Shown here: positions 40,215 through 64,000 of the stretch, in pieces
Layout of the letters: each line of letters starts with the position of its first letter
Position numbering within the stretch: the first letter of the stretch is position 1
NCBI RefSeq assembly: GCF_035658495.1
Contig: NZ_CP141944.1
Coordinates: 1,576,001-1,640,000, forward strand
Source of the DNA: Novosphingobium sp. RL4
GTDB taxonomy: Bacteria > Pseudomonadota > Alphaproteobacteria > Sphingomonadales > Sphingomonadaceae
Length of the DNA: 64,000 nucleotides
Direction of reading: 5' to 3'
The notes under the pieces: model-generated
Database searches by the model: none
Told to the model about the DNA's origin: nothing
What the model saw: the letters and a program-made list of their open reading frames with translations, nothing else
Made by a program: the position numbers and the translations under genes

Positions 40215-40268
40215 GATAGATCCTCTCTCGATTTTTTATTTGTTCAATCGCGCAAATCGGTCTTTGCG

Positions 40269-41117
40269 CTAGATTACTCTGTTTTCTATTGCGCCAATGC
40301 CGTCGACTTCGCATCGGACAACGTCGCCAGACCCGAGGAAAACAGGGGGCTCTCGACCCACTCCGACGCCTTCAGGCGTCCCCGTGGCAATGAGATCGCC
40401 CGGCTCGAGCGTAAATGCCTGGGACAGATAGGAAATCTGGGCAGCGATGCTGTGGATCATGTTCCCAGTGTTATTGCTTTGCCGCAGTTCCCCGTTGACA
40501 TAGCTTCGCAGATTGAGCGCCTGCGGGTTCGGGACTTCATCAGCTGTCACCAGCCATGGGCCGATCGGCCCATGCGTGTCGAACGACTTGCCCATAGTGA
40601 AGGTCGGTGAGTGGAACTGCCAATCTCTGGCCGACACATCGTTGGTTACGGTGTATCCGAAGATGTAATCGAGTGCGTCCGTTTCTGAAACGGCCTTGGC
40701 GGGCCGCCCGATCACGACTGCGAGTTCAACTTCGTAATCCAGCTTTTCCGTGATACCCGGTTCAATCCCGTCGTAGGGACCGGAGAGGCAGCTCGTTTGC
40801 TTGTTGAACCAGACTTGGTGCTTGGATCGCGCGACGCCTAGTTTGTCGGCCTCTTCGAGATGCTTGGCATAGTTCATACCGATGGCGAGGTACTTGCCAG
40901 GCCGCTCGATGGGGGCAAGCAATTGAACTTCGGAGAGCGGCCGCACCGATGCTGCGGATGCAGCCTGCCGAAGAATATCCAAGCCTTTTGAGCCCGCCGC
41001 TATGACCTCCGTCATAGTGCGATACGGAATGTTGGTCGTCGTAAGATCCAGGACGTTATCGTGCTCTACGATGCCGATGCGGGCGCCTTGGTCCGATTGG
41101 AAGCGGATGAGTTTCAT
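40269..41117 (-). CDS. Fumarylacetoacetate hydrolase family protein (module 1)
   Basis: A 282-residue FAH-fold enzyme. Key segments are GKYLAIGMNYAKHLEEA (oxyanion/catalytic region), the metal-binding LDYEVELAVVIG with two glutamates, YTVTNDVSARDWQ and the C-terminal GDLIATGTPEGVG. Relatives hydrolyse, hydrate, isomerise or decarboxylate ring-cleavage products. Here it sits between the hydroxylase and the extradiol dioxygenase, so it probably handles the meta-cleavage product. The start overlaps the hydroxylase stop by four bases, so translation is coupled. Confidence 0.92.
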   Translation of the reverse strand: MKLIRFQSDQGARIGIVEHDNVLDLTTTNIPYRTMTEVIAAGSKGLDILRQAASAASVRPLSEVQLLAPIERPGKYLAIGMNYAKHLEEADKLGVARSKHQVWFNKQTSCLSGPYDGIEPGITEKLDYEVELAVVIGRPAKAVSETDALDYIFGYTVTNDVSARDWQFHSPTFTMGKSFDTHGPIGPWLVTADEVPNPQALNLRSYVNGELRQSNNTGNMIHSIAAQISYLSQAFTLEPGDLIATGTPEGVGVGREPPVFLGSGDVVRCEVDGIGAIENRVI

Positions 41118-42745
41118 GCGTTCTCCTTGCGCGGTGCGATTGGGCGGCGATCGTCGATTTTGACGCCGGCGCTGCTGAGTTCGTTAAAAAGGGCTTCAAC
41201 CAGTGGTGGAAGATCGCAGGCGCCGACGGCGCCGCCGAAGACATAGAAGTCGGGGCGAATGATCATTGCTGACCAGCCTTGGGCATCAAGGAATGCATGG
41301 ATGCGCCCGTCCACATCCTTCCAACTCGGCTCGCCATCGGGCGCATCGATGTTGACGAATGCCACGCCCAATTCCTCCAATTTGAGGAGATCGCGATCGG
41401 ACAGATGTTTTTCGGCGCTAAGCGCGCGAGAGATAATGACAAAGTGACTTCCGGCGCCGGTGACCTCGTCCAGTGGGCTTATCACGCTTCCTTGCTTGAT
41501 GACGGAATGGGGCGAGAGCAGCCCGGCGCCGGCCTGTAGCTGGCCTTCGCCATCTCGGCGTAGCAAGCCTGAGATTAACTGCGGGAAGGGGGGCATGGCT
41601 GGCGCACGCCCCTCAAGGAAGAGGCGGTCGCGGTTTGCTGCTTCTTCCGGATCGGGGATGCAGATGATCTTGCCGAGGAAGATGGCCATATCGATAATCT
41701 GGCTCACGTGTGGGAGCCGTTCGATTTGGTAGCTATCGAGGAGACTGTCGTCTGCCTTGCCATCCAGGATCAGGCCCAGTTTCCAGGCAAGGTTCCAGCT
41801 GTCGCGAAGCCCCGCGCACATTCCCTGCCCCAGGAACGGCGGCATGACATGCGCTGCGTCACCGGCAATCATGAGGCGGCGATCTCTCCAGCGATCCGCT
41901 ATCAGAGACCTGAAATTGTAGACTTTGTGCCGAACCAATTCGACCTCATCAGGCCCGGCCCAGGCTTCCAGGAGCTTCCAGACGTAGGACTCCTGTTCCA
42001 GATCCTCGACAGTTTCACCGGGAAGCCGCATGAACTCCCAGCGACGGAATTTCTTTCCATCGCGCACGCCGGCCGGCACGATGGTCGTCGGCCGGTCGGG
42101 GTTACAATATTGGCCGGCCTCCGGAATTCCTAGACCTTCGACGGTTACGCCATCTTTCAGAAGCACGTCGACCACCAGCCAATCGGCCTGGAAGCCTCGA
42201 TCCTCTTGCTGCGAACCAATCGAACGCCGCACGAGGGAATTGGCGCCGTCACAGCCGACAATATACCGTGCCGAAACCTGCTTCACTTCTCCAGTTTCGA
42301 CTGATTTTAGCGTAACTTGCGCGGTATTTTCATCTTGGGTGACCTCGATCGCCTCCCAACCCAGGTTGAGGCTAACCGTTGGCTGGGCTTGAACTTTTTC
42401 GTCAAGCGCCGTCTCGAGCGTCGGTTGGTGGACGAAGTTGATTTCGGGCCCACCGGAGATCGCCGGCTTGCCCCAGTCAATTACCAGAAGCTCCTGCCAC
42501 TGCGCGTTGAACCATTGATAGAGCGACCCTGGGTGGGTGAGGGAAGGGAGCTCTTCACGCAATCCGGTCGCGGCGAGGACACGGTATAGCTCGTGGTCGA
42601 CGCACACAGCCCGGGGAAGACGATAGCGTGTCGTCCAGCGTTCAAAGATCGCGACGGATCGCCCCTGTCTTGAGAGCATCAAGGCAAGCGACTCGCTGAC
42701 AGGTCCGTAACCGATCAGAATCACATCAAAAGTGTTGTTGTTCAT
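41114..42745 (-). CDS. FAD-dependent aromatic hydroxylase (MhpA-like, module 1)
   Basis: A 543-residue class A flavin monooxygenase of the 3-(3-hydroxyphenyl)propionate hydroxylase type. The N-terminal dinucleotide loop reads IGYGPVSES, so the third glycine of GxGxxG is serine. The DG motif (GCDGANSLVR) and the GD motif (IAGDAAHVMPP) are intact, and the C-terminus has the thioredoxin-like domain of the family. It adds an ortho hydroxyl to a phenolic acid with NAD(P)H and O2. It is first in an operon with FAH and extradiol dioxygenase, and its promoter carries a large dyad at 42782-42826. Confidence 0.9.
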   Translation of the reverse strand: MNNNTFDVILIGYGPVSESLALMLSRQGRSVAIFERWTTRYRLPRAVCVDHELYRVLAATGLREELPSLTHPGSLYQWFNAQWQELLVIDWGKPAISGGPEINFVHQPTLETALDEKVQAQPTVSLNLGWEAIEVTQDENTAQVTLKSVETGEVKQVSARYIVGCDGANSLVRRSIGSQQEDRGFQADWLVVDVLLKDGVTVEGLGIPEAGQYCNPDRPTTIVPAGVRDGKKFRRWEFMRLPGETVEDLEQESYVWKLLEAWAGPDEVELVRHKVYNFRSLIADRWRDRRLMIAGDAAHVMPPFLGQGMCAGLRDSWNLAWKLGLILDGKADDSLLDSYQIERLPHVSQIIDMAIFLGKIICIPDPEEAANRDRLFLEGRAPAMPPFPQLISGLLRRDGEGQLQAGAGLLSPHSVIKQGSVISPLDEVTGAGSHFVIISRALSAEKHLSDRDLLKLEELGVAFVNIDAPDGEPSWKDVDGRIHAFLDAQGWSAMIIRPDFYVFGGAVGACDLPPLVEALFNELSSAGVKIDDRRPIAPRKENA

Positions 42746-42781: not shown

Positions 42782-42826
42782 TTCATATTATCATTAATGT
42801 CATGATGACAAAAATGATAATATGAA
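42782..42826. promoter_or_regulatory. 45-base near-perfect dyad, operator of hydroxylase operon
   Basis: Two 22-base arms flank a single central G at 42804 and match at 20 of 22 positions. The core is TGTCA-TGA-TGACA (42798-42810). On the minus strand a TTGTCA with a TATGAA 18 bases later could be the -35 and -10, so the dyad would cover the promoter. It ends 37 bases upstream of ATG 42745. The TetR protein encoded next door is the likely binder. Confidence 0.75.
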
Positions 42827-44367: not shown

Positions 44368-44479
44368 AAAAATGAGCATGTTTCCGGTCGACGATTTAGC
44401 CCCGAAAGTTTGAATTTATCTAGCAGGTATAAGGGTTTGTGGTTCGATGCATCGGAGAAATCTTCGCCAATGAAAGGAA

Positions 44480-45198: not shown

Positions 45199-46188
45199 TT
45201 AGATGTATCCGGCCTCGCGGTAGTACCGCTCTGCACCTGGATGAAGTGGAACTGGGGTATCGGCCATCTTGAATGGATCGAGCGGATAGCTCAGCGGGCT
45301 CCGTTCCGGCGGAATATGGCGGTATTGGGCTTCGAGGGTGCCGCGGGTTTCGACAAGGCACCAGGCCAGCAAATGGGCAATATCGTCGGGCATGTCGTCG
45401 CGAACGAGAATAACGAAGTCGGAAAAATCGAGCGTGTCGATCGCCTCCGGCAGATTGTCCCAGTAACCTGCAGGAAGGCTGTTGCGGCGAAATCCATAGT
45501 TCTGCTTCAGCACTGCCAGAGCCTGCTCTTCGGCCGGTAGCGCGACAGCATTGCGGACACTCATGGCTTCGCGCCACCAGGGGGTCATGATTGCTTCCTG
45601 GAGTACCGCGTCCACTTCACCCGAAACCATTCGGGCAATCGACTGCTCTGGGCGCTGGGAAACGACATATTCGCCGCCCCAGGACTTGAGGGTCGCCTCG
45701 TCAATGCCATGGGCTTCCATATAACGCTGGCTGACATACCCAATGTAGTTGGTGCCATCGTCGACCGAAGCGGCGATCCGCAAGTTGGGCTTTTTGGCGC
45801 GCAGCTCTTCAAATGTGGAAACGCCGAACTTTGGATCAATCGCCAGTACCAGGCGATCGTTTTGCGGGAGAACGCCAAGAGCGCGAAGAGTCGGCATTGC
45901 GTTGCCGGAAAAGATGCCTTCCCCAACCAGCGCGTCACCGACCAGCATGGCCGGCGTCGTGATGCAAAGCTGTGCCTCACCATCGAAAACCGAAATCGGC
46001 CCTTCGAGGCCTCCGCCGCGCGTATTCCAAATGGCGACACGGCTTCGCAGACCGGCTCGATCGCTGAATTCCTGGCAGAGCCAGGAGCAAATCCGGTGGA
46101 AATTGGCCTGGCCCCAGTCGCCTACAAAATTCAAGGTGACGGAGCGGTCGATCGAGGGGGATCCCGGGCTCTGCATGTACTCTCCCAT
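45199..46188 (-). CDS. TAXI-family TRAP-type solute-binding protein lacking a signal peptide
   Basis: A 329-residue protein of the TAXI (TRAP-associated extracytoplasmic immunogenic) fold: LNFVGDWGQANFHRICSWL, then VAIWNTRGGG, ITTPAMLVGDAL and the lobe with IAASVDDGTNYIGYVSQRYMEA. Normal TAXI proteins have a Sec signal and partner with TRAP permeases. This one starts MGEYMQSPGSPSIDR with no hydrophobic segment, and there is no permease gene. It may bind an aromatic acid in the cytosol. ATG 46188 is the first plausible start; the frame continues upstream into the MFS terminator. A TGACA-N6-TGTCA operator sits 25 bases upstream. Confidence 0.82.
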   Translation of the reverse strand: MGEYMQSPGSPSIDRSVTLNFVGDWGQANFHRICSWLCQEFSDRAGLRSRVAIWNTRGGGLEGPISVFDGEAQLCITTPAMLVGDALVGEGIFSGNAMPTLRALGVLPQNDRLVLAIDPKFGVSTFEELRAKKPNLRIAASVDDGTNYIGYVSQRYMEAHGIDEATLKSWGGEYVVSQRPEQSIARMVSGEVDAVLQEAIMTPWWREAMSVRNAVALPAEEQALAVLKQNYGFRRNSLPAGYWDNLPEAIDTLDFSDFVILVRDDMPDDIAHLLAWCLVETRGTLEAQYRHIPPERSPLSYPLDPFKMADTPVPLHPGAERYYREAGYI

Positions 46189-46212: not shown

Positions 46213-46228
46213 TGACAAGGTTCTGTCA
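46213..46228. promoter_or_regulatory. TGACA-N6-TGTCA operator of the TAXI gene
   Basis: TGACA-AGGTTC-TGTCA forms a 16-base dyad 25-40 bases upstream of the start codon. An extra TGTCA half-site follows at 46243. Confidence 0.7.
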
Positions 46229-46337
46229 AAATGGAAATACACTGTCAAGGATTCGAGGTCGCGATCGGCTGTCACATCCCAAGCTGAAAGTGTGGTCTGC
46301 GGTAGGAAATGTGGTCGGAAGCGGGCCTGTTCGGCAC

Positions 46338-47752: not shown

Positions 47753-48697
47753 TCAAAGGTCTAGTTTGATGAGCGGTGACAGAGCGCGCGAGCAGCAAAG
47801 AGCCATGCAGTTGTTTTGCGCTTTTTCCTCATCCGTCAGATAATGATCGCGATGATCGGGGAGCCCCTCGAGAATGTCGGTAATGCACGAGCCGCAGATT
47901 CCCTTTTCGCACGAAACCTCGACCTCGCAGCCTTGTTCGATCAGCACGTCGGCGATCGAGCGACCGGCGGGGATTTCGAATTCCGTTCCGTCAGCAAGCT
48001 GGACCTTGAAAGGCCCGCCGCTTGTGTCCGTCTCGGCGTCGAAATACTCGAAGTGGATCCGCGCGTCGGGCCATCCGAGACCGCGAGCGGCTTCGATGAC
48101 ATGGTCCATGAAGCCCTGTGGCCCACACACGTAGATATGGTCGTCTCCGGTCGGAGCGCCAATGTCTGCCGTGAAATCGAAGCGGCGGTCCTCGGAGAAG
48201 TGTGCCTGCACAGACGGCGCCAAGGAGCCAGCGAGCAGCTCTTCGAGAAACGGCGCTTTGCTGCGGTCCCGCGCGCAATAGTGAAACTCGAACGGAGCGC
48301 CTCGGCTTCCCAAGGCGTGGGCCATCGCGATCAGCGGTGTAGCGCCGATGCCACCGGCTATGAGGAGACTGCGACCAGTCGCCGGCTCGAGCGGGAAGAG
48401 GTTCCTGGGTGAAGAGATACGGGCGCGCATTCCCTCGGCCCACTGCGTGCAGACGATCTTAGAGCCGCCGCGTGAGTTGGCGTCATTCAATACGCCGATC
48501 CTGTAACGATGAGTTTCCTCAGGATCGTTGCAAAGCGAGTATGGTCGGATCAGATTCGAGCGGATGAACAGCTCGATGTGCGCACCTGCCTCGAACGGCG
48601 GCAACTGGCCGCCGTCAGCGGCGACCAGTTCGAAAGTGTGGACGTCACCAGACAGCTTTTCAGTCCGGCGAACAATGACTTCCAGATGGCCCGACAT
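47753..48697 (-). CDS. VanB/phthalate dioxygenase reductase-type oxidoreductase
   Basis: A 314-residue single-chain reductase. The flavin domain carries RPYSLCND (51-58), the NAD domain AGGIGATPLIAMAHAL and the YVCGPQGFMDHV motif. The C-terminal plant-type [2Fe-2S] domain has CEKGICGSC and a later cysteine in NNCMALC. It passes electrons from NAD(P)H to a partner oxygenase, as VanB does for the demethylase VanA. No Rieske oxygenase lies in the window, so the partner is missing or it serves something else. ATG 48697 follows the PPOX stop as TGACATG; the upstream in-frame extension is only a shadow of the PPOX gene. Confidence 0.92.
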   Translation of the reverse strand: MSGHLEVIVRRTEKLSGDVHTFELVAADGGQLPPFEAGAHIELFIRSNLIRPYSLCNDPEETHRYRIGVLNDANSRGGSKIVCTQWAEGMRARISSPRNLFPLEPATGRSLLIAGGIGATPLIAMAHALGSRGAPFEFHYCARDRSKAPFLEELLAGSLAPSVQAHFSEDRRFDFTADIGAPTGDDHIYVCGPQGFMDHVIEAARGLGWPDARIHFEYFDAETDTSGGPFKVQLADGTEFEIPAGRSIADVLIEQGCEVEVSCEKGICGSCITDILEGLPDHRDHYLTDEEKAQNNCMALCCSRALSPLIKLDL

Positions 48698-48698
48698 G

Positions 48699-49274
48699 TC
48701 AGCCGTCCTGCTGGGCGAAGTAGTCGAATTGTCCCCATTGCGGTCGACCGGAGGCGTTGAACACGACCGCGCTGAGGACGTCGATCCGAGCGACCTGTTT
48801 ACGCTGCATGACTTCGGGATCGTTGTACTTGGCCTGCGCTTGCGGTGAGACGAACGCCAACTCCTGCTCGTCGCTAACCAGACTTGCCACGCCCTGTAGC
48901 TGGACGCCTTTGGCTTCCCGCCGGCGCTCGAACCCCACTGCATAATGGGCTTCGAAGGAGACGCGGCTGTCCCTATCGATGTTTACCAGTTCGCGCTGTG
49001 CCAGTCCGCTGATGAGATAGATTACCGGACGGCCGGTACCATCGTCGAGAGAGACGTAGCGAACGCCGCACCCGACCGGCCATCCGTCTGCGGTGACAGT
49101 GCTGAGGTGACCGTGTGCCAGATTTGCAAGAACTTCGAGCACCGTTGCACGTACCTCGGCGTCGGCGGCCGGCTTATAGGGCTTCGGCGCACCTTCCTGA
49201 TCCAGTCGATAATCGCCAGATGCGAGGGCGCTGGCGAGCAGCGGAGAGGGCTGAGAGGGGGAGGCGACGTCCAT
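48699..49274 (-). CDS. PPOX-fold flavin/pyridoxamine oxidase-like protein 1
   Basis: A 191-residue split-barrel protein of the pyridoxamine-5-phosphate oxidase superfamily. Marks are LSTVTADGWPVGCG, RPVIYLISGLAQRELVNI and SRVSFEA. Such proteins bind FMN, heme or F420 and reduce or oxidise small substrates. It is clearly a paralogue of the gene just upstream (same GWPV, RPV-YL and NI...RV pattern). ATG 49274 is chosen; the longer frame to 49406 runs into the upstream paralogue. It is one base away from the reductase gene, suggesting coupled translation and perhaps a shared flavin chemistry. Confidence 0.82.
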   Translation of the reverse strand: MDVASPSQPSPLLASALASGDYRLDQEGAPKPYKPAADAEVRATVLEVLANLAHGHLSTVTADGWPVGCGVRYVSLDDGTGRPVIYLISGLAQRELVNIDRDSRVSFEAHYAVGFERRREAKGVQLQGVASLVSDEQELAFVSPQAQAKYNDPEVMQRKQVARIDVLSAVVFNASGRPQWGQFDYFAQQDG

Positions 49275-49302: not shown

Positions 49303-49905
49303 TCAGGCAGCTTCTGGAGCGTCGAGCGCTGAGAAGGTGTCGCTGTAATCCACGGTGACTGGCGCGATTCCGTTGGCAGGATCTTGCCAAACGGCGCTGA
49401 CGACATCGATACGAAGTGCCGGCTGCGTCTCGAGACCGAGATAGCGGGCGAATTCGTATCCTTCCTTTTGGAACTGGCATTCCATCGCCAGCTGATGTTC
49501 TTTGGGATCGGTGACCTGCGTCGCGAGACCCTGAATCTTCAATGAGGGCGCCGTTGCGGGATCGCCGTCGCTGCGGCCTTCGAGGACGAAAGCACCCACG
49601 CGCGGATTACCCTGGATATTGGTCAGCTTGCGCTTGTGCTCGTGTGTGAAGAGGTAGAGGACCGGTCGCATCTGGGGGCCGTTCGCAGACGCAAAATGCA
49701 TGCAATGCGAGACCGGCCAGCCGTTGCTTCCAACGGTCGAAAGTCCGACCAATTCGGCATGGGCGAGAAAAGCCTGGACCTGCTCCTTCACAGTCTGGCT
49801 CGGCTCAGCGGCGCTTGCCGGAAGCTGGTCGAGATCGCGCAGGTGCTCGCCCGACCGAGCAAGAGGTACGATTGTCTCAGGCGTCGATGCTGCATCAAGT
49901 GGCAT
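49303..49905 (-). CDS. PPOX-fold flavin-binding protein 2
   Basis: A 200-residue split-barrel protein of the same superfamily. Marks are VGLSTVGSNGWPVSHCMHF, MRPVLYLFTHEHKRKLTNI and PRVGAFVLEG. Together with its downstream paralogue it may form a heterodimer, since split-barrel proteins work as dimers with the flavin at the interface. It is first in the operon PPOX2-PPOX1-reductase-MFS; a hairpin (49928-49950) separates it from the TonB receptor gene upstream. The function is not defined. Confidence 0.82.
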   Translation of the reverse strand: MPLDAASTPETIVPLARSGEHLRDLDQLPASAAEPSQTVKEQVQAFLAHAELVGLSTVGSNGWPVSHCMHFASANGPQMRPVLYLFTHEHKRKLTNIQGNPRVGAFVLEGRSDGDPATAPSLKIQGLATQVTDPKEHQLAMECQFQKEGYEFARYLGLETQPALRIDVVSAVWQDPANGIAPVTVDYSDTFSALDAPEAA

Positions 49906-53079: not shown

Positions 53080-53108
53080 TTGACAGAGTTTTGTCAAAGA
53101 GACAAAAT
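53080..53108 (+). promoter_or_regulatory. Promoter with TGACA-N6-TGTCA operator for the cupin pair
   Basis: TTGACA (53080-53085), a 17-base spacer and CAAAAT (53103-53108) form a sigma-70 promoter with a consensus -35. The dyad TGACA-GAGTTT-TGTCA (53081-53096) covers the -35 and spacer, so repressor binding would block it. An AGACA eight bases after the TGTCA also makes an imperfect TGTCA-N3-TGACA site. Confidence 0.72.
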
Positions 53109-53184
53109 CTGTCGGTCAGCCGGTTGCTTCGATACCGGCGGAGAGATTCCGCGCGCAGCGCTGATAAGGCCAAGGAGAGAGATG

Positions 53185-53826
53185 ATGAACATGCCAGGTG
53201 CCGAGGGGCATCGAGAAGAGCGGGTGCCCCTGAAGGTCAATGCGTTCGAGGTCGTGCGCGGTTCCAACTCGCAGCTTTTGCCGCTGTTCCCATACGTTGG
53301 GGCCGGCGCCATCGTGCCGTGCTCTGCGGCCTTCGAAAGCGATGGCAGCGGGACGAACATCGGGTACTTTCTTCATGAAAATACCGTCGATGAGGTTGCC
53401 CTGACGCTGGGATCAAACGGGCGTGCACGCACCGGGGATATGGCTGTCGGTCCGCGTGAACACGGCGTGGGCGGCGACTCGAGCGAGCCGTTCTTTGCGG
53501 TGATGGTTATCACCCAGCGCCAGCTTGATGAGGGTGAGCAAACGGAAGCGATGAGCTTCCAGTGCGAGAAGTGCAACACCGTGCTTCACCGCTACGAGTT
53601 CGACGAACACGAAGGCGGCGAGGGCGCGTTTGCAGGCTTGCCGACGATCATGGGTTCGGATGCTGCCGCGCTTGGTTTCAATGCCAGCGAAGAAGCCAGA
53701 ACTTGCCCTTCCTGTGGCCACGTCAGCAGGCCGTTCCCGCTCTATATCTGGGGCTGGAGCAACTATACCCGCAACACCAGGATCGCGAAGAATGCCTGGA
53801 ACGCCATGGAAGAGGTTATCTCCTGA
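53185..53826 (+). CDS. 3-hydroxyanthranilate dioxygenase-like cupin, subunit A
   Basis: A 213-residue protein combining a cupin with a rubredoxin-like zinc/iron ribbon. The cupin keeps the ligand pattern of 3-hydroxyanthranilate 3,4-dioxygenase: H64 and E70 in LHENTVDEV, and H93 in GPREHGV. The ribbon has CEKC (C127, C130) and CPSC (C174, C177). Overall identity to that enzyme appears low, so the substrate is likely different; a ring-cleaving role is inferred. ATG 53185 has AAGGAG seven bases upstream; ATG 53182 is only four bases away. The stop overlaps the partner gene as TGATG, so the two are made together. Confidence 0.75.
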   Translation: MNMPGAEGHREERVPLKVNAFEVVRGSNSQLLPLFPYVGAGAIVPCSAAFESDGSGTNIGYFLHENTVDEVALTLGSNGRARTGDMAVGPREHGVGGDSSEPFFAVMVITQRQLDEGEQTEAMSFQCEKCNTVLHRYEFDEHEGGEGAFAGLPTIMGSDAAALGFNASEEARTCPSCGHVSRPFPLYIWGWSNYTRNTRIAKNAWNAMEEVIS

Positions 53827-54401
53827 TGACGGCACCTGTCCGGACCCGGCGCAAGAACGCCTTCAACATTTATCGTGAAGCGGAAAAGCTCGCCTCCTTC
53901 GACGAATTTCCGATGCTTCGACCGGAAGTCGATCCTCAAGTTCACCTGAGCAAGAATGACGTGGATCAGCCATTTCACCTGGCCTGCGAAAAGGACACGG
54001 TGCTGGCGCAAATGAGCGGCAAGTCCCGCGTCATCTTCGCTGACGGGTCGGTTCGGTTCTTCGATCTGGTTCCCGGCGAGTTCGCCTATGTGCCAGCGGG
54101 TTATGCGCACCGCATTCTGACTGTCGAACCGGGGGCTGTGATCCGTTACAAGGCGCAAAAGCCGGGCAATGAGTCGATCATTTGGTACTGCAGCTCATGC
54201 GATGCCGAAGTGCATCGCTTTGATTGGCAAGCCGACGAGGCGCCTGTGCAGCAAGGATACGTCGAGGCCTGCCAGGAGTTCAACGCCGACGTCAAACACC
54301 GGACTTGTGGCGGTTGCGGCACTGAACTGCCGCCCGTCGATCTGACTGCTTTCCGCTGGGATGCTATCTCCGCAAAGCTGCTCGAAGCGGACGACGAATA
54401 A
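53826..54401 (+). CDS. 3-hydroxyanthranilate dioxygenase-like cupin, subunit B
   Basis: A 191-residue cupin plus rubredoxin-like ribbon. Cupin ligand positions are H51, D57 and H95, matching the spacing of H51, E57 and H95 known for the Cupriavidus 3-hydroxyanthranilate dioxygenase but with aspartate in place of glutamate. The ribbon (WYCSSCDAEVH and RTCGGCGTELPP) has C122, C125, C161 and C164, the FeS4 site of bacterial members. It is closer to the classic family than subunit A. Its ATG overlaps the stop of subunit A. A strong terminator follows ten bases after the stop, so this is a two-gene operon. Confidence 0.82.
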   Translation: MTAPVRTRRKNAFNIYREAEKLASFDEFPMLRPEVDPQVHLSKNDVDQPFHLACEKDTVLAQMSGKSRVIFADGSVRFFDLVPGEFAYVPAGYAHRILTVEPGAVIRYKAQKPGNESIIWYCSSCDAEVHRFDWQADEAPVQQGYVEACQEFNADVKHRTCGGCGTELPPVDLTAFRWDAISAKLLEADDE

Positions 54402-54410
54402 AAAGCAAAA

Positions 54411-54446
54411 CCGGCGCCGATACGGTATCGGCGCCGGCTTTTGTTT
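54411..54446. terminator. Bidirectional intrinsic terminator
   Basis: CCGGCGCCGATA pairs perfectly with TATCGGCGCCGG over 12 bases with a three-base loop, flanked by an A-rich run on the left and TTTTGTTT on the right. It can end both the cupin operon and the convergent MarR gene. Confidence 0.93.
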
Positions 54447-54473: not shown

Positions 54474-54959
54474 TTATTCGTCGTCCTCCTCCGTGCCTCT
54501 CGCCATTTCGCTCAATCGTCGTACGACGTCCACCGCAGCCTGTAGTTCTGCGGTATTGAATGCCTGGCCGAGATCGTTCGACCAGATGTGCTGACGGCGA
54601 CTGACCTCTTCGAAAGTTTCGCGGCCCTTGTCGGTGTTCCGCACCAGCTTCGCGCGGCGGTGATCCGGGTTTTTCACCAACTCAACCATGCCGTCCTTCA
54701 CGAGCGACTGCACCACCCAGAGGATACCCTGTCGGGTCAGTTCGTAATCCCGAGCGATCTGCGCCACGGTTTTCGGTGTTTGCGCGATCGCCCCGAGAAC
54801 TTGCCAGCGCGCCGCCGTTAGTCCCAGCTCCTTTGAAAGCGTGTCACCACCGCGCAGCAGCCGACCGTTTGCTCGAAAGATCGTCATTATGAGGTCGGTG
54901 ACGGCACTGCCTTCGGGCGTATGGGGTACCGATATGGCTTGCGCATCAGCTTCGGACAT
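54474..54959 (-). CDS. MarR-family transcriptional regulator 2
   Basis: A 161-residue winged-helix regulator: LGLTAARWQVLGAI, the recognition segment TVAQIARDYELTRQGILWVVQSLV and wing NPDHRRAKLVRNTDKG, with an acidic tail EEDDE. ATG 54959 is chosen; an in-frame extension to 55037 would cover the operator at 54988-55003. That operator, TGACA-N6-TGTCA, matches sites at the TAXI gene, the cupin pair and the aldehyde dehydrogenase/FAD reductase promoter, so this protein is the best candidate for their repressor and for autoregulation. Confidence 0.9.
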   Translation of the reverse strand: MSEADAQAISVPHTPEGSAVTDLIMTIFRANGRLLRGGDTLSKELGLTAARWQVLGAIAQTPKTVAQIARDYELTRQGILWVVQSLVKDGMVELVKNPDHRRAKLVRNTDKGRETFEEVSRRQHIWSNDLGQAFNTAELQAAVDVVRRLSEMARGTEEDDE

Positions 54960-57027: not shown

Positions 57028-58539
57028 TCAGTTCCTCCGAACGATGAGGTTGCGGATTTCACTCATGTCTTCCATCGCGAAGCGGATCCCTTCGCGGCCC
57101 AGTCCGGAGTCTTTGACTCCGCCATATGGCATGTTGTCGACGCGGTAGCTGGGCACATCATTGATCACGACGCCGCCGACTTCGAGGCGGTCCCATGCGT
57201 CAAACATCTTGAAAAGATCGCGGGTGAAAATCCCAGCCTGGAGGCCGAATTTGCTGTCGTTGACCATCTCCAGGGCCTCGTCGAAAGAGGAGAACCGGGC
57301 AAGAATGGCGACGGGGCCAAACGCTTCCTCGACGTTGAGCTGGGCCTTGGGATCGACATTTTCGAGTAGAGTTGCTGCAAGCACGCGGCCGTCGCGCTGA
57401 CCGCCGCACAAGAGCGTCGCTCCCAATCCTACGGCCTCTTCAATCCAGGCTTCAAGGCGCCCGGCCTCGGAGTCGGAGATCATGGGGCCAACGAAAGTTT
57501 CTCGGTTCTTGGGATCGCCCGCGATGAGCGACTTGGTTCGCGCGACCAGCAAGTCGCGGAACGCTTCGTAAACCTCATCGTGAATGAGAATGCGCTGTAC
57601 ACCGATACAGCTCTGTCCCGACTGGTAGAAGGCTCCGAAGATCACGCGATCGAGTGCGTCCGACAGGTCGGCGTCACGGTCGATGATGACGGCAGCATTA
57701 CCGCCAAGTTCAAGGACCACCTTTTTCTTGCCGCTTCGTGCTTTCAGATCCCAGCCGACCTCAGGGGAACCCGTGAACGATAGCAGTTTGAGCCGATCGT
57801 CGGTCGTGAACAGATCGGCTCCGTCGCGGTGCGCGGGCAGGATCGAGAAAGCGCCTTCAGGCAAATTCGTCTGGCTGAGCACTTCACCCATGATCAGCGC
57901 GCCCAGCGGCGTTCGGCTGGCCGGTTTCATCACGAACGGGCACCCGACTGCAATGGCAGGCGCAATCTTGTGCGCGGCAAGATTGAGCGGAAAATTAAAG
58001 GGCGAAATGAAGGAGCAGGGGCCGATCGGGACTCGCTTCCACATGCCTTGATAGCCCTTGGCACGAGCAGAGATGTCGAGCGGTTGCACCTCGCCGGTCA
58101 TCCGCACGGATTCTTCGGCGGCGATTCTGAACGTATCGATCAGGCGTCCGACTTCCCCTTCCGCGTCTCTGATTGGCTTCCCGGCCTCGACGCACAGCGC
58201 ATATGCCAATTCGTCGAACCTGGCACGAAACTGCTCAACGCAGTGCTGAAGAACAGCTTGGCGCTCGTAGCTTGCCATACGTGCCATCGGTTCGGTGGCG
58301 GCAACTGCGCCAGCGATCGCCTGATTGATTGTCTGCGCGTCGGCTTGAGCACAGCGAAACGCCACTTCTCCCGTGAACTTGTCGGTCACTTCAAGGTCGG
58401 CGTTCGGCTGCGCCGCCTTGTTGTTGAGATAGAGCGGATAGATCGATTCTAGTTGTGTCACGTCGGCCTTCACCTGCGGTTGAAATGGCTTTTCAGGGGC
58501 GGTCAGCACACTGAACCTTATTGACACATACTTGTCCAT
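57028..58539 (-). CDS. Aldehyde dehydrogenase (NAD(P)-dependent)
   Basis: A 503-residue ALDH. Catalytic residues are present: N182 (SPFNFPLN), K205, the general base E277 (VVLELGGNAAV) and the nucleophile C311 (SGQSCIGVQR). The GEVGRLIDTFRIAAEE region and the fold are close to vanillin/benzaldehyde-type dehydrogenases. It oxidises an aldehyde intermediate to the acid in the cytosol. ATG 58539 is the only ATG, but the tandem operators at 58522-58556 would then overlap its first codons; a GTG at 58509 with AATAAGG just upstream is a serious alternative. Coupled to cytochrome b561. Confidence 0.92.
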   Translation of the reverse strand: MDKYVSIRFSVLTAPEKPFQPQVKADVTQLESIYPLYLNNKAAQPNADLEVTDKFTGEVAFRCAQADAQTINQAIAGAVAATEPMARMASYERQAVLQHCVEQFRARFDELAYALCVEAGKPIRDAEGEVGRLIDTFRIAAEESVRMTGEVQPLDISARAKGYQGMWKRVPIGPCSFISPFNFPLNLAAHKIAPAIAVGCPFVMKPASRTPLGALIMGEVLSQTNLPEGAFSILPAHRDGADLFTTDDRLKLLSFTGSPEVGWDLKARSGKKKVVLELGGNAAVIIDRDADLSDALDRVIFGAFYQSGQSCIGVQRILIHDEVYEAFRDLLVARTKSLIAGDPKNRETFVGPMISDSEAGRLEAWIEEAVGLGATLLCGGQRDGRVLAATLLENVDPKAQLNVEEAFGPVAILARFSSFDEALEMVNDSKFGLQAGIFTRDLFKMFDAWDRLEVGGVVINDVPSYRVDNMPYGGVKDSGLGREGIRFAMEDMSEIRNLIVRRN

Positions 58540-58556
58540 ATGACAGAGCCTTGTCA
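58522..58556. promoter_or_regulatory. Two tandem MarR-class operators in a divergent promoter
   Basis: TGACA-CATACT-TGTCC (58522-58537, one mismatch) and TGACA-GAGCCT-TGTCA (58541-58556) lie 19 bases apart, about two helix turns, between the divergent aldehyde dehydrogenase and FAD reductase genes. Cooperative binding on one face is likely. Confidence 0.75.
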
Positions 58557-58606: not shown

Positions 58607-59824
58607 ATGCAAGCTGTCATTGTGGGAGCCGGACAGGCCGGAGCACGCGCGGCCAAGGCGATGCGAGGTGCAGGCTTCGAAGGTTCGATCAAGGTTTTCG
58701 GGTCTGAAGCGCACATGCCTTATGAGCGCCCTCTGCTGTCCAAGACGCTGTTACAGGACCCGGCGACGCCGGTTCCTTTCGTCTTTGCCGACGGTATCTA
58801 CCAAGAAGCGGGCATCGAGGTGCACACCGGAGCGACAGTGACCGGGATTGACCGCGAAAGGCAGGTCGTGACCCTCGCCGATGGCTCAACGGAGTCTTAT
58901 GATCGGCTGCTTTTGGCGACAGGCAGCAGGGTCCGGACTCTCGCCATCGATGGATATCCGCCTGAACGTATCCTCTATCTGCGCAGCCTCGATGACTGCC
59001 GCGCCATAGAAGCGCTCATCGGCGGTCAGCCGAGTGTCGCTATCGTGGGCGGAGGCTTTATCGGGCTCGAAGTCGCCGCGACCCTTGCCGGGCACGGCTG
59101 TCAGGTGAGTGTGGTGGAGATGGCCGATCGGCTTCTCCCCAGGCTTGGATGCGCAGACGCCAGTGCAATGGTGCTGGCGCATCACCTTTCAGTGGGCGTC
59201 GATGTGCGGTTGAGTGCAGCCATTGCAGGCGGCGAACCCGGATTACTGACTCTGGGCGACGGCGATCACATTCCTGCGGACTTCATTGTCGCAGGAGTGG
59301 GCGTGATGCCGGACACCGCGCTGGCGCAGGCTGCGGGCCTTGCGGTTACTGATGGAATCGTCGTCGATGAATTCGGCCAGACGTCAGACCCCAACATCTT
59401 CGCAGCAGGGGATGTAACGCGTCACTTCAATCCGCTGTTGGGCAGCCAACTGCGCCTTGAATCCTGGCAGAACGCAAATCTGCAGGCGGAAGCCGCCGGC
59501 AGAACGATGGCTGGCGTACCGACCGCATATGCCGAAATCCCGTGGCTTTGGTCGGATCAAGGGGGGCTCAATCTGCAGATGGCAGGCGCTCCCCAGAACG
59601 TCGACAACGTCGTGCTGCGCGGCGATCCGGCTGGCGAAGACGGCGTGACCGTTTTTCAGTTCTGCGAGGGCCGCCTGGTGGGCGGCGTCACGCTCAACCG
59701 CGGCAAGGAGATGCCGCTCATTCGCCGATTGCTGGTGACAGGCGATCTCGCGCTTCCGGCGACGAGCCTCGGCGATACCGCCATCCCGCTGCGGCAGTTC
59801 ATTCCGAAGAAAGTCGAAGCATGA
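58607..59824 (+). CDS. FAD-dependent ferredoxin reductase-type oxidoreductase
   Basis: A 405-residue flavoprotein of the class II (BphA4/putidaredoxin reductase) family. Marks are the FAD loop VGAGQAGARAA (about 6-16), the NAD loop IVGGGFIGLEVA (about 147-158), the FAD motif FAAGDV and the C-terminal reductase domain with WLWSDQGGLNLQMAG. It oxidises NADH and reduces a one-electron carrier. The start codon of the flavodoxin gene overlaps its stop (ATGA), so the carrier is likely to be that flavodoxin rather than a ferredoxin. Confidence 0.93.
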   Translation: MQAVIVGAGQAGARAAKAMRGAGFEGSIKVFGSEAHMPYERPLLSKTLLQDPATPVPFVFADGIYQEAGIEVHTGATVTGIDRERQVVTLADGSTESYDRLLLATGSRVRTLAIDGYPPERILYLRSLDDCRAIEALIGGQPSVAIVGGGFIGLEVAATLAGHGCQVSVVEMADRLLPRLGCADASAMVLAHHLSVGVDVRLSAAIAGGEPGLLTLGDGDHIPADFIVAGVGVMPDTALAQAAGLAVTDGIVVDEFGQTSDPNIFAAGDVTRHFNPLLGSQLRLESWQNANLQAEAAGRTMAGVPTAYAEIPWLWSDQGGLNLQMAGAPQNVDNVVLRGDPAGEDGVTVFQFCEGRLVGGVTLNRGKEMPLIRRLLVTGDLALPATSLGDTAIPLRQFIPKKVEA

Positions 59825-60279
59825 GTGAAAAGATAACGATCTTGGTCGCAACCATGAGCGGCACGGCAGAAATGGTCGCCGACGAACTGGCCGGCCATAT
59901 TGAAGATGCCGGCGGCGAAGCGCGCATCGTGCGAATGGAAAAAGCTTCCGTAGCCAAGCTCCAGGAAGGCGGGACCTGGATCATTTGCTCATCGACATAC
60001 GGAACGGGTGACGTTCCCGATAACGGACAGGCCTTTTACAAGGCTTTGCTGGAAGAGCGTCCTGACCTCAGTGCCGTGCGCTACGGCGTGTTTGCCCTCG
60101 GCGACAGCGTCTATCCCAATACATTCTGCTTTGGCGGCAAGAAGTTCGACGCCGCGCTTTCCGAACTCGGGGCGAAGCGCATCGGTGATCTTCAGGAGCA
60201 CGATGCGCGCGGCGGAATCTATCCCGAAGACGCAGCGGCCGAATGGATCGAAGGGTGGCTGGAGAGCGCCCAGAGCTGA
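59821..60279 (+). CDS. Flavodoxin (MioC-like)
   Basis: A 152-residue FMN protein. The phosphate loop is ATMSGTAE at residues 10-17, the second FMN loop is SSTYGTGDVPDNG, and GVFALGDSVYPNTFC is the third. It is a low-potential electron carrier of the short flavodoxin or MioC class. Translational coupling to the FAD reductase indicates a reductase-flavodoxin pair feeding an oxygenase such as a cytochrome P450. No such oxygenase is present in the window, although the sequence ends in an aromatic module. Confidence 0.9.
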   Translation: MSEKITILVATMSGTAEMVADELAGHIEDAGGEARIVRMEKASVAKLQEGGTWIICSSTYGTGDVPDNGQAFYKALLEERPDLSAVRYGVFALGDSVYPNTFCFGGKKFDAALSELGAKRIGDLQEHDARGGIYPEDAAAEWIEGWLESAQS

Positions 60280-60321: not shown

Positions 60322-61032
60322 GTGGACAATGCATCCGTTTCCCTGACCGCCGCCGACGGTGGCAGTTTCACCGCCTATCTGGCGAGGCCTTCGAAGCCCA
60401 ACGGCGCGGCTGTCGTCGTGCTTCAGGAAATTTTCGGGATCAATGCAAATATCCGGGGCATCGCCGACGATTTTGCGGACGAGGGCTTTGTCGCAATCGC
60501 TCCCGACCTTTTTTGGCGTCAGGAGCCTAATGTCGAACTGAACCCCGCCAGCGAAAGCGATCGCGAGCGGGCTACCGCTCTCCTCAAGGGCCTCGACCAG
60601 CAGGCTGCCGTGGCTGATGCGCTGGTTGCTGCAAGCTATGCGCGCGAACTACCCGAAGTTACCGGAAAGGTCGGTGCTGTCGGCTATTGTCTGGGCGGAA
60701 AGCTGGCATTTCTGCTCGCTGGCGAACCTGGTATCGATGCGGCTGTCTCCTATTACGGCGTGATGATCCAGGCGGCGCTCGACCGGGTGCCGGCGGTTCG
60801 CGCCAAGTTGCTGCTGCATATTGCCGAAGACGATCATCTTTGTCCGCCGGAGGCTCAGCAGGCCATCCGCGTGGCCGCTGACGCCGCCGCCGATCGCATC
60901 GAAATTATGAGCTATCCCGGCGTGGGGCATGCGTTTGCCCGGCGCGACAGCCAACCGTTCAACGCAAGCGCGGCTGAGCGTGCAGACGCCGCAACACTGG
61001 CACTGCTTCGCTCGGAACTCGGAGCAGGTTGA
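60322..61032 (+). CDS. Dienelactone hydrolase family protein
   Basis: A 236-residue alpha/beta hydrolase of the carboxymethylenebutenolidase family. The triad matches the known enzyme numbering: E36 (VLQEIFG), C123 (GYCLGGKLA), D171 (IAEDDHLCP) and H203 (PGVGHAFARRD). It opens enol-lactone rings formed from muconates. GTG 60322 is the start, after AGAAGGATC. It follows the flavodoxin by 42 bases and is directly followed by the class II aldolase, so all belong to the same plus-strand operon. Confidence 0.93.
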   Translation: MDNASVSLTAADGGSFTAYLARPSKPNGAAVVVLQEIFGINANIRGIADDFADEGFVAIAPDLFWRQEPNVELNPASESDRERATALLKGLDQQAAVADALVAASYARELPEVTGKVGAVGYCLGGKLAFLLAGEPGIDAAVSYYGVMIQAALDRVPAVRAKLLLHIAEDDHLCPPEAQQAIRVAADAAADRIEIMSYPGVGHAFARRDSQPFNASAAERADAATLALLRSELGAG

Positions 61033-61764
61033 ATGGAGACCGTCGACGCCCATGCGTCCATCGCCTTGGCGAGCCGTATCCTGGCTCGCCAAGGGGTTGT
61101 CGACGGGTTCGGGCATGTGAGCCGTCGCTGTGAAGCAAATCCCGACCGGTTTCTGATGTCGCGGAGTTTGGCACCGGCTTTGGTGCGTGCAGGGGACATT
61201 GTTGAACTCGATCTGGCAGGCAATTGCGAGGCGCCCTCCGCGCCGCCGCTGTTTCTAGAACGTTTCATTCATGCGGCGATTTACAGGGCCAGGCCAGACG
61301 TCATGGCGGTCGTTCATAGCCACGCCGCAGCAGTCCTTCCCTTCACCGTCGTGCACGATGTCTCCGTCAGACCGATTTGCCATATCTGCGGATTTCTCGA
61401 AGGTGTCTCGCAGCCCTTCGATGTCGCTGACCACGCAGGGGACGCGAGTGATCTGCTGATACGCAATGAGGGACTTGGCGCGGAATTCGCGCGTCACCTC
61501 GACGGTGCGGCTGTTGGGCTCATGCGGGGCCATGGCTTCACAACAGTAGGCGCCAGCGTCGCGCAAGCTGTGTTTCGGGCGATTTATACCGTCCGCAACT
61601 GCGAAGTTCAGGCCGCAGCGCTCCAGCTTGGATCGCCAAAATATCTCTCCTCGGGTGAAGCGCGTAGCTGCGAGGAAACGACCATCGGCCAAGCCGATCG
61701 CGCGTGGAACCTGTGGGTCCATGACCTGGGACAGGAACAAGAGGACATATTCCATGACCGCTGA
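61033..61764 (+). CDS. Class II aldolase/adducin-fold enzyme, probable decarboxylase or aldolase
   Basis: A 243-residue zinc enzyme of the class II aldolase/adducin family. Ligands and acid are E76 (LERFIH), H95 and H97 (VVHSHAAAV) and H167 (MRGHGFTTVG). In aromatic pathways this fold includes decarboxylases of carboxylated catechols or ring-cleavage products (CmtD, PhtC types), which fits its position next to an extradiol dioxygenase. Sugar-phosphate aldolase activity is less likely in this context. It begins directly after the DLH stop and its stop overlaps the dioxygenase start. Confidence 0.85.
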   Translation: METVDAHASIALASRILARQGVVDGFGHVSRRCEANPDRFLMSRSLAPALVRAGDIVELDLAGNCEAPSAPPLFLERFIHAAIYRARPDVMAVVHSHAAAVLPFTVVHDVSVRPICHICGFLEGVSQPFDVADHAGDASDLLIRNEGLGAEFARHLDGAAVGLMRGHGFTTVGASVAQAVFRAIYTVRNCEVQAAALQLGSPKYLSSGEARSCEETTIGQADRAWNLWVHDLGQEQEDIFHDR

Positions 61765-62605
61765 GCTGACCAAGCCCTTGCAGGCGACACTGCACCACAT
61801 TGCGCTCGGATCGCCCGATTGTGAGAAGTTGGCGCAGTTCCACCACCGCGTGATGGGTCTTGATATCCGGCCGGAAGGCGACGGTTTTCTTGGAACCGCG
61901 CCCGGCCGCCGCGTCCACTTTGTCCCCGGCGCCGCCAAGACGCTGGTGTTCGCCGGGTTTGCCGTGGTTGCTCAGGACGATCTCGACGCTCTCGAACAGC
62001 GGCTCGTTGCGCGCAAGTGGACGTTCGATCGCCTGATTGAGGGAACGGAGCAATTCCTCCCGGGCGCAATCGAAGTCGTCGACCCGGATGGCAATATGAT
62101 GCGCTTCGGTCTTGGCCGGACGGCAGATGTCCCCGTGCCGGGGGCGCTGCCGGCGCGTCTCCAGCATGTCGTTGTCGCGAGCACGGACGCGGCAAGGTTG
62201 TCGCTGTTTTACCAGGAAGTGCTCGGGTTCACTCTCTCCGACAATGTCGTCGACGAGGATCGTACGCTCAAGACGGCATTTTTGAGGTGCAGTGAAGAGC
62301 ACCACAGCTTTGCCGTGTTTCAGGCCTCAAGCAATCGCTTCGACCATCATTGCTATGAAGCGCGCGAATGGTCTCTCATCCGCGATTGGGGTGACCATTT
62401 CGCGGCGCAGCACGTCGCCGTCGAGTGGGGGCCTGGGCGGCACGGACCTGGAAACAATCTGTTCCTTTTCATTCACGACCTCGACGGCAACTGGCTGGAA
62501 ATTTCCGCTGAACTCGAGATCGTCACGCCCGATCGGCCGGTCGGCGAATGGCCGCACGCTCAACGCACACTGAACCAGTGGGGCAGTGCTCCGCTGCGGA
62601 CCTGA
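61754..62605 (+). CDS. Type I extradiol dioxygenase (VOC superfamily, module 2)
   Basis: A 283-residue two-domain VOC protein. The C-terminal iron triad is H138 (RLQHVVVAS), H198 (RFDHHCYE) and E249 (NWLEISAELE), plus the GRHGPGNNLF loop of extradiol dioxygenases. It should cleave a catechol-type ring. ATG 61754 overlaps the aldolase gene by 11 bases. It differs strongly in sequence from the first extradiol dioxygenase (39279-40214), so the two probably act on different rings or side chains. Confidence 0.88.
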   Translation: MTAELTKPLQATLHHIALGSPDCEKLAQFHHRVMGLDIRPEGDGFLGTAPGRRVHFVPGAAKTLVFAGFAVVAQDDLDALEQRLVARKWTFDRLIEGTEQFLPGAIEVVDPDGNMMRFGLGRTADVPVPGALPARLQHVVVASTDAARLSLFYQEVLGFTLSDNVVDEDRTLKTAFLRCSEEHHSFAVFQASSNRFDHHCYEAREWSLIRDWGDHFAAQHVAVEWGPGRHGPGNNLFLFIHDLDGNWLEISAELEIVTPDRPVGEWPHAQRTLNQWGSAPLRT

Positions 62606-62689
62606 ACACGTTTCACATCTTCATTGACTGACTGACTGATCGGAAGGGTGCGCCGCGTAGGCACGCCATTCCGCCAACGGAGAGCGAAT

Positions 62690-63538
62690 ATGAGACTGGC
62701 TAGTTTTGAGCATGCAGGCGTTACCACCTGGGGCGTGATTGACGGCAGCGAAGCCATCGACGTCGGGGCGGTGCTTGGGGCTGAATATCCCACGCTGCGG
62801 ACTGCAATTGCTGCTGATGCGACGGGCCGAATCTCGGCGGTTCTCGCCGATGTGCCGCGCTTCAGTGTCGACGACATCACTTGGTTGCCGGTCATTCCCG
62901 ACCCGACCAAAATCCTCTGCATCGGTCTCAACTACGAGATGCACCGCGTCGAAACGGGGCGTGACGTGACGGGCCATCCTGCTGTCTTCACCCGCTTTGC
63001 CGATAGTCAGATCGGACATAAGGCCCCGATCGTTCGTCCTCACATGTCGACGGAACTCGACTACGAAGGCGAGCTTGCGATCGTGATCGGCAAGGGCGGA
63101 CGTTACATCAGCCGTGACCAGGCGATGGACCATGTCGCGGGCTATTCGATCTACAATGACGGAAGCGTTCGCGATTGGCAGCGACACACGATCCAGTTCA
63201 CGCCGGGCAAGAATTTCCCGGGGACGGGCGCTCTCGGTCCTGTGCTGGTGACTTCGGACGAGATTACCGATTACCGCGAACTGAAGCTCGAAACCCGTGT
63301 GAACGGCGAAGTGCTCCAGTCTGCCGGTCTCGATCAGCTCATTTTCTCGATCCCGGTGCTGATCGAATATTGCTCTACCTTCACCCCGCTCAATCCCGGC
63401 GACGTGATCGCGACCGGCACGCCGGGCGGCGTCGGCGCCAAGCGCAAACCGCCGGTGTGGCTGAAGCCCGGCGACAAGGTCGAGATCGAAGTCTCCCAGA
63501 TCGGGATCCTGCAAAACGAGGTCGAGGATGAGCGCTGA
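62690..63538 (+). CDS. Fumarylacetoacetate hydrolase family protein (module 2)
   Basis: A 282-residue FAH-fold enzyme with KILCIGLNYEMHRVE, the metal site LDYEGELAVVIGKG, AGYSIYNDGSVRDWQ and the C-terminal GDVIATGTPGGVGAK. It likely hydrolyses or hydrates a ring-cleavage product of the dioxygenase just upstream. ATG 62690 follows an AACGGAGAG ribosome site. It belongs to a different FAH subgroup from the module 1 enzyme. Its stop overlaps the next hydroxylase gene by 11 bases, so they are coupled. Confidence 0.93.
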   Translation: MRLASFEHAGVTTWGVIDGSEAIDVGAVLGAEYPTLRTAIAADATGRISAVLADVPRFSVDDITWLPVIPDPTKILCIGLNYEMHRVETGRDVTGHPAVFTRFADSQIGHKAPIVRPHMSTELDYEGELAIVIGKGGRYISRDQAMDHVAGYSIYNDGSVRDWQRHTIQFTPGKNFPGTGALGPVLVTSDEITDYRELKLETRVNGEVLQSAGLDQLIFSIPVLIEYCSTFTPLNPGDVIATGTPGGVGAKRKPPVWLKPGDKVEIEVSQIGILQNEVEDER

Positions 63539-64000
63539 ACAGGCGACCGGTCGGCCCTACGATGTGATCATCGTAGGTGCCGGCCCGACCGGATTGGTAT
63601 TGGCCAATCTGCTTGGTGGCCAGGGTGTTTCGACCCTGGTCATCGAGCGCAATCCGACAACCGTCCAAGAGCCGCGAGCGGTTTCGATCGACGATGAGTC
63701 GCTCCGCACGGTGCAGGCTTCCGGGATGTTGGAATCGGTGATGGGCGGTGTCGTGGCCGGTTACGGCTCGCGCTATCTGACCCCGCAGGGCAAATGCTTC
63801 CTTACCGTCCTGCCGAGCGGCCGACCCTATGGACATTCGCGCCGTAACGCATTTCGGCAACCTGATTTCGAAAGCCGGATGCGCGAAGGGCTAAACCGCT
63901 TTCCGCACATCACCGCACTCTTTGGCTGGGAAGTCCAGAGTTTCCACCAGGATGCGGAGGGCGTCGAAGTCACTATCTCCGGTGAGGGCGAGACGCGAGC
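63528..64000 (+). CDS. FAD-dependent aromatic hydroxylase (module 2), N-terminal part
   Basis: The first 157 residues are in the window; the gene runs off the right edge. The dinucleotide loop is intact (IVGAGPTGLVLANLL), followed by the ER motif of strand 2 and EPRAVSIDDESLR, typical of the MhpA-like class A flavin monooxygenases. It should hydroxylate a phenolic acid to a catechol. It is the last visible gene of the plus-strand operon running from 58607. The DG and GD motifs lie beyond the window, so completeness cannot be judged. Confidence 0.88.
   Translation, partial: MSAEQATGRPYDVIIVGAGPTGLVLANLLGGQGVSTLVIERNPTTVQEPRAVSIDDESLRTVQASGMLESVMGGVVAGYGSRYLTPQGKCFLTVLPSGRPYGHSRRNAFRQPDFESRMREGLNRFPHITALFGWEVQSFHQDAEGVEVTISGEGETR

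What the first reader, a model, noticed from the sequence alone, without database searches (positions are those of the whole stretch)
53185..54401. Coupled pair of diverged 3-hydroxyanthranilate-dioxygenase-like cupins with rubredoxin ribbons
Two adjacent genes overlap at their stop and start codons and both encode a cupin plus a CxxC...CxxC ribbon. Subunit A keeps H/E/H (H64, E70, H93); subunit B has H/D/H (H51, D57, H95). The known enzyme is a homodimer from one gene. A two-subunit version, in an aromatic cluster without other kynurenine genes and under its own repressor site, could be a new heteromeric ring-cleavage dioxygenase with one altered iron site.
Basis: partly seen in the sequence, partly recalled or inferred. 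Interest (0 to 1): 0.85.

Follow-up and report, generated by a model that had tools for sequence, protein, structure and literature searches.

The report
Two-subunit cupin oxygenase with redox partners
Two neighbouring genes look like the two halves of an undescribed oxygen-using enzyme, one half with the metal site and the other without it, and they appear to be switched on together with genes that could feed the enzyme electrons.

The parts
53182..53826 (+). Subunit A: cupin with metal motif H65-x-N67-x3-E71...H94 and Cys4 ribbon (C128, C131, C175, C178); proposed catalytic subunit
53826..54401 (+). Subunit B: cupin with degenerate metal site (D57, H95 kept, H51 not conserved) and Cys4 ribbon (C122, C125, C161, C164); proposed vestigial partner
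53089..53107 (.). Exact palindrome TTTTGTC-AAAGA-GACAAAA upstream of A; operator-like, recurs upstream of A or the fusion in six other loci
54402..54446 (+). Inverted repeat (22-base arms, 86% complementary) directly after B, followed by T-rich sequence; terminator-like
54474..54959 (-). MarR-family regulator; relatives in 6 of 6 split proteobacterial loci compared; candidate repressor (start chosen by eye)
58530..58548 (.). Operator-like site 58 bases before the reductase gene; score above the mean, below the highest, of 20 shuffles
58607..59824 (+). Ferredoxin-reductase-like protein (AndAa/HcaD type)
59821..60279 (+). Flavodoxin; proposed electron carrier to A-B
60322..61032 (+). Dienelactone-hydrolase-family protein, in 4 of 6 split proteobacterial loci compared and in the Mycobacterium locus
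45199..46176 (-). Binding-protein-fold (NMT1_3/TAXI-like) protein without an evident signal peptide; possible lyase or decarboxylase
46221..46239 (.). Operator-like site 45 bases before the binding-protein-fold gene; score above the mean, below the highest, of 20 shuffles
42795..42813 (.). Operator-like site 50 bases before the MhpA-like hydroxylase gene (41114-42745, -); score above all 20 shuffles

Best explanation
A and B form one heteromeric metal-dependent cupin oxygenase of the 3-HAO fold. A holds the catalytic metal (Fe(II) assumed) through H65, E71 and H94, with N67 beside it. B no longer binds a metal there and serves as structural or substrate-pocket partner, as the metal-free subunit of hydroquinone dioxygenase does. 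Electrons from NAD(P)H reach the enzyme through a dedicated reductase and flavodoxin (in relatives a Rieske ferredoxin or a VanB-type reductase), most simply by way of A's rubredoxin-like Cys4 site, either in turnover or to restore Fe(II). The product goes on to the co-regulated binding-protein-fold and hydrolase enzymes of an aromatic catabolic pathway. Shown by computation: folds, conservation, fusions, co-occurrence, gene linkage, operator-like sites. Inferred: metal identity, complex in solution, electron flow, oxygenase chemistry, substrate class.
For: 3-HAO is the best structural match of both. Metal motif of A invariant in 96 of 96, B's lost. All ten long hits are B-A fusions. B in 10 of 11 genomes with A. 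Mirror-tree r 0.736, reached by 0 of 2000 permutations, 32 pairs. Reductase and flavodoxin in 6 of 6 split proteobacterial loci compared; Rieske gene next to a fusion or Rieske domain in 3 of 10 fusions; VanB-type reductase 4 bases after B on a plasmid. Shared operator-like sites. In this genome the window flavodoxin is the only one of three hits outside a large frame, and no P450 or Rieske oxygenase hit lies within 268 kb of the window.
Against: No biochemical data. I saw no redox gene beside the three adjacent myxobacterial pairs (L010, L012, L014), nor an operator-like site in the Mycobacterium, AntQ-1 and Phaeobacter loci. The sites before the reductase and binding-protein-fold genes in this window do not exceed the highest shuffle. 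The pathway has other enzymes, so the redox genes might serve one of them. The link of electrons to A's Cys4 site is inference.
Confidence: 0.6

Rival explanations
1. As to structure the same, but a classical extradiol-type dioxygenase that uses no electrons in turnover; the redox chain only re-reduces iron that has gone to Fe(III), as reactivation ferredoxins do for catechol 2,3-dioxygenase.
For: Ferredoxins that reactivate extradiol dioxygenases are established (passages of PMC2590616), and the two-subunit hydroquinone dioxygenase of Sphingomonas loses activity in oxygen (passages of PMC3222310). Explains why the carrier type is exchangeable and missing from myxobacterial loci.
Against: Does not by itself explain a dedicated reductase plus carrier in 6 of 6 loci or a fused Rieske domain; neither excludes it.
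Confidence: 0.4
2. A-B is a plain dioxygenase, and the reductase, flavodoxin and Rieske proteins serve some other enzyme of the pathway.
For: The regions hold other catabolic enzymes, e.g. MhpA-like hydroxylases in 4 of 6 loci. L006 carries a Rieske ferredoxin-like and a Rieske oxygenase-like gene about 8 kb away (by eye).
Against: Rieske domains fused to A and a Rieske gene 10 bases after a fusion gene. I saw no other electron-dependent oxygenase in L005 within the stretch fetched.
Confidence: 0.2
3. A-B is not an oxygenase but a metal-dependent lyase, isomerase or hydrolase on the cupin fold.
For: Cupins are functionally diverse (passage of PMC10306065); the substrate is unknown.
Against: Best structural matches are ring-cleaving dioxygenases; 2-His-1-Glu motif kept; linked redox genes.
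Confidence: 0.12
4. One reading: B has a second, altered iron site (H/D/H).
For: This window's B does read H51, D57, H95; D57 and H95 are conserved.
Against: Position 51 is His in 23 of 91 sequences and otherwise mostly aromatic.
Confidence: 0.08

Closest known systems
3-hydroxyanthranilate 3,4-dioxygenase, ribbon-bearing bacterial and yeast type
   Same: Fold of both subunits, Cys4 ribbon, 2-His-1-Glu motif in A
   Different: Two different subunits; A lacks the arginines conserved in seven true 3-HAOs and has Gln112 where all seven have Glu; linked redox genes; scores far under the family cut-off
Two-subunit hydroquinone 1,2-dioxygenase (PnpCD, HqdAB)
   Different: No PnpD N-terminal domain hit in A; PnpD-type proteins have no CxxC; no sequence similarity by A's profile; linked redox genes here
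Reactivation ferredoxins of extradiol dioxygenases
   Same: Electron carrier genetically linked to a ring-cleaving dioxygenase to restore Fe(II) (passages of PMC2590616)
   Different: Here flavodoxin plus reductase, or a Rieske domain fused to the enzyme; the partner is a ribbon-bearing cupin
Animal-type 3-HAO (one-chain bicupin; architecture recalled)
   Same: Two cupin halves, one vestigial, as in the B-A fusions
   Different: Here the vestigial half comes first, and the catalytic half keeps a Cys4 ribbon

Membership tests
3-hydroxyanthranilate 3,4-dioxygenase | Cupin fold with Cys4 ribbon | tested here: met
3-hydroxyanthranilate 3,4-dioxygenase | Score over the NCBIfam family cut-off | tested here: not met
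   23.9 and 40.9 bits against 220
3-hydroxyanthranilate 3,4-dioxygenase | Substrate-pocket arginines and glutamate conserved in true members (roles recalled) | tested here: not met
   Present in 7 of 7 true 3-HAO genes, absent at the aligned positions in 10 A representatives aligned (of 86)
3-hydroxyanthranilate 3,4-dioxygenase | Cleavage of 3-hydroxyanthranilate | not testable with these tools
   Needs an enzyme assay
Two-subunit hydroquinone 1,2-dioxygenase | Two cupin subunits, one with the metal site | tested here: met
   Models and conservation; complex itself not shown
Two-subunit hydroquinone 1,2-dioxygenase | HxNxxxE metal motif in the catalytic subunit | tested here: met
   96 of 96 A sequences; 3 of 3 PnpD-type proteins read
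Two-subunit hydroquinone 1,2-dioxygenase | PnpD N-terminal domain (PF18191) | tested here: not met
   No hit in A or B nor in the own genome
Two-subunit hydroquinone 1,2-dioxygenase | Cleavage of hydroquinone | not testable with these tools
   Needs an enzyme assay
Dioxygenase with reactivating electron carrier | Carrier gene linked to the dioxygenase gene | tested here: met
Dioxygenase with reactivating electron carrier | Carrier restores Fe(II) and is not used in turnover | not testable with these tools
   Needs stoichiometry and EPR

The most novel reading that the evidence does not exclude
A cupin oxygenase that works like a Rieske system: a heteromeric terminal component whose built-in rubredoxin-like site receives electrons from a dedicated reductase with flavodoxin or Rieske ferredoxin, with NAD(P)H consumed in each turnover, for instance a reductant-dependent ring oxygenation or cleavage.
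Probability: 0.3. Interest if true: 0.88.

Novelty: new variant of a known kind. Interest (0 to 1): 0.73.

Why it matters
The rubredoxin-like iron of bacterial 3-HAO has been proposed as an iron reservoir (known to me here from the title of a paper cited in PMC10143591). A family in which A's ribbon stays intact even in fusions while B's is lost, which is genetically tied to electron carriers and is fused to a Rieske domain in three proteins, makes a redox role of such a site directly testable. It would also be another lineage, besides hydroquinone dioxygenase, that shares cupin catalysis between one metal-binding and one vestigial subunit.

Tried and rejected
Rejected: B as a second iron site. 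Rejected: A as a chance cupin match; fold search and invariant motif agree. Rejected as unsupported: a role in anthraquinone degradation taken from the AntQ-1 homologue. In the paper the pathway genes are drawn at 68,745-106,725 bp of plasmid pANTQ-1 (abstract and passages), while the pair lies at about 116-118 kb.

Led nowhere: A's profile against PDB sequences gave only chance-like hits. Literature searches showed no description of this system (listings only, the library holds open-licence papers); one search found no paper; led to the reactivation passages; led to AntQ-1. Read as passages only: PMC10143591, PMC3222310, PMC10306065, PMC2590616; PMC9836352 as outline, abstract and passages. 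No hydroquinone dioxygenase row appears in the VIA-align listing for A, which excludes nothing.

Limits of the counts: of 87 A hits 86 were aligned (P0088, a partial hit with another domain, was left out), and 81 of 81 B hits. One search returned 43 hits; 10 of them are the fusions, 33 are A-only proteins. The 11 loci were found by searching for A, so A is present by construction. A was found in 1 of 396 sampled Sphingomonadales genomes, the own one. The gene caller is my own; it missed B in L004 and A and B in L012, which the profiles show, and it missed some window genes. The seven operator-like sites were picked as the best match to the window palindrome within 350 bases upstream before the leave-one-out matrix was made, so some of their likeness is selected; in L006 the picked site has 4 mismatches. 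L010-L014 were not tested for the site. Protein functions in L006, L010-L014 and L029 not given a Pfam call were judged by eye.

Full report
What is there. A (53182-53826, 214 aa) and B (53826-54401, 191 aa) lie on the + strand and share one base (TGATG). No Pfam family reaches its cut-off in either. NCBIfam's 3-HAO models match both weakly: A over the ribbon region, B over the second half of the cupin and the ribbon. An inverted repeat with 22-base arms follows B directly.

Which subunit is catalytic. In A, H65, N67, E71 and H94 are invariant in 86 of 86 split proteins and in 10 of 10 fusion halves. In B, position 51 is Tyr 27, His 23, Phe 20, Trp 6, Leu 4, Ala 1 of 81 and Phe in 10 of 10 fusions. 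B keeps D57 (91 of 91), H95 (89 of 91) and R107 (91 of 91), so its pocket is conserved, but not as a metal triad. Three PnpD-type proteins, read out of three of five matching genomes, have the same HxNxxxE motif as A and no CxxC. Against seven true 3-HAO genes from Sphingomonadales, ten A representatives (of 86) show no arginine at the two positions where all seven have one, and Gln112 where all seven have Glu. I infer that 3-hydroxyanthranilate is not the substrate; the roles of those residues are recalled.

Are A and B one enzyme. A query of the two proteins joined found 43 proteins, ten of them 413-552 aa long. The profiles show all ten hold B first and A second; in three the B part lacks about 20 profile positions of the ribbon. 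The A halves keep all four ribbon cysteines in 10 of 10; the B halves keep none of three, and the fourth (C161) in 3 of 10. Eleven fusions (the ten and one from a genome) form one clade in a quick tree of 36 rows. Of 11 genomes that hold A, 10 hold B: nine beside A, and in Enhygromyxa salina SWB007 the one A and the one B are on different contigs. In the eleventh, a MAG, the contig ends inside A. In L006 and L007 B is divergent from A. Distances of 32 pairs correlate (r 0.736; 0 of 2000 permutations reach it), part of which is common descent.

Electron-transfer genes. The window and five other split proteobacterial loci, 6 of 6, carry a ferredoxin-reductase-like protein, a flavodoxin and a MarR regulator; the binding-protein-fold protein is in 5 of 6 and in the Mycobacterium locus. 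Two plasmid loci add an FAD oxidoreductase and flavodoxin (Phaeobacter, annotated as two pieces) and a VanB-type reductase 4 bases after B (AntQ-1). The Mycobacterium locus has a pyridine-nucleotide oxidoreductase in the same run of genes. In Rhizobiales bacterium 62-17, which also has a split pair (L005), a B-A fusion gene is followed 10 bases on by a Rieske ferredoxin gene, which overlaps a binding-protein-fold gene. In P0171, P0173 and P0174 a Rieske domain follows A in the same chain; its CxH and CxxH ligands are readable by eye. Beside the three adjacent myxobacterial pairs I saw no such gene; two of them (L010, L014) and the lone B of L029 have a small SCO4226-like protein next to them (Pfam call for L014 only). 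In this genome three flavodoxin hits exist, two of them in frames of 892 and 1430 aa. The nearest P450 hit is about 269 kb and the nearest Rieske-oxygenase hit about 819 kb from the window.

One regulon. TTTTGTC-N5-GACAAAA occurs exactly once in the window, before A; six sites have up to three mismatches, 1.07 expected. With a leave-one-out matrix, the site before A or the fusion is the best of its locus in 6 of 7 proteobacterial loci and second in L007, each above all 20 shuffles. Sites before the reductase gene: L004 4978 and L007 13681 (above all shuffles), 58530 here (above the shuffle mean only); in L005 the site lies between reductase and A, in L008 between flavodoxin and A. Sites before the binding-protein-fold gene: L007 12624 (above all shuffles), 46221 here and 5837, 5856 in L004 (above the mean only). 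A site before the MhpA-like gene (42795) and one at 43741 are above all shuffles, one at 44478 above the mean only. The seven sites were picked by likeness to the window palindrome, so the test is not blind. Mycobacterium, AntQ-1 and Phaeobacter loci show no such site.

Interpretation. The simplest reading is a heteromeric cupin oxygenase: A catalytic, B vestigial, supplied with electrons by exchangeable partners. Electrons may be consumed in turnover, or only restore Fe(II) as reactivation ferredoxins do. Because unlike carriers recur and one is fused to the enzyme, I think coupling likely and its role undecided. Neighbouring hydroxylase, extradiol-type, FAA-hydrolase-type and dienelactone-hydrolase-type genes fit aromatic catabolism; the substrate is unknown.

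Novelty. Two cupin subunits with one metal site are known from hydroquinone dioxygenase, and the ribbon from 3-HAO. The combination, the fusions and the linked redox genes I did not find described in the searches. Hence a new variant of a known kind, with a possibly new mechanism.

Noticed in passing
window 45199-46176 (-); relatives in L004, L005, L007, L008, L009, L028: A binding-protein-fold (NMT1_3/TAXI-like) protein without an evident signal peptide travels with the A-B pair; some enzymes with this fold are lyases or decarboxylases (recalled).
   Followed up: partly
L028:8665-11349 and L005: Rhizobiales bacterium 62-17 carries both a split A-B pair and a B-A fusion with a Rieske ferredoxin gene.
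   Followed up: yes
L009, L010, L014, L029: A small protein of about 93-100 aa (SCO4226-like by Pfam in L014 and, under cut-off, in L009) sits next to A or B in the Mycobacterium and myxobacterial loci; role unknown.
   Followed up: partly
window 39279-42745 (-) and 61628-64000 (+): Two sets of extradiol-type (VOC), FAA-hydrolase-type and FAD-hydroxylase-like genes flank the pair; the second hydroxylase runs off the window.
   Followed up: partly
window 48699-49274 and 49303-49905 (-): Two adjacent PNPOx-like genes next to a VanB-type reductase gene (47753-48697).
   Followed up: no
window 19448-30055 (+): A 3535-aa repetitive protein, followed by genes that look by eye like a type I secretion system (30124-34839).
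   Followed up: no
L004:403-3212 (-): By eye, an intradiol-dioxygenase-like and a maleylacetate-reductase-like gene next to the hydrolase gene, so the pathway below A-B may differ between hosts.
   Followed up: no
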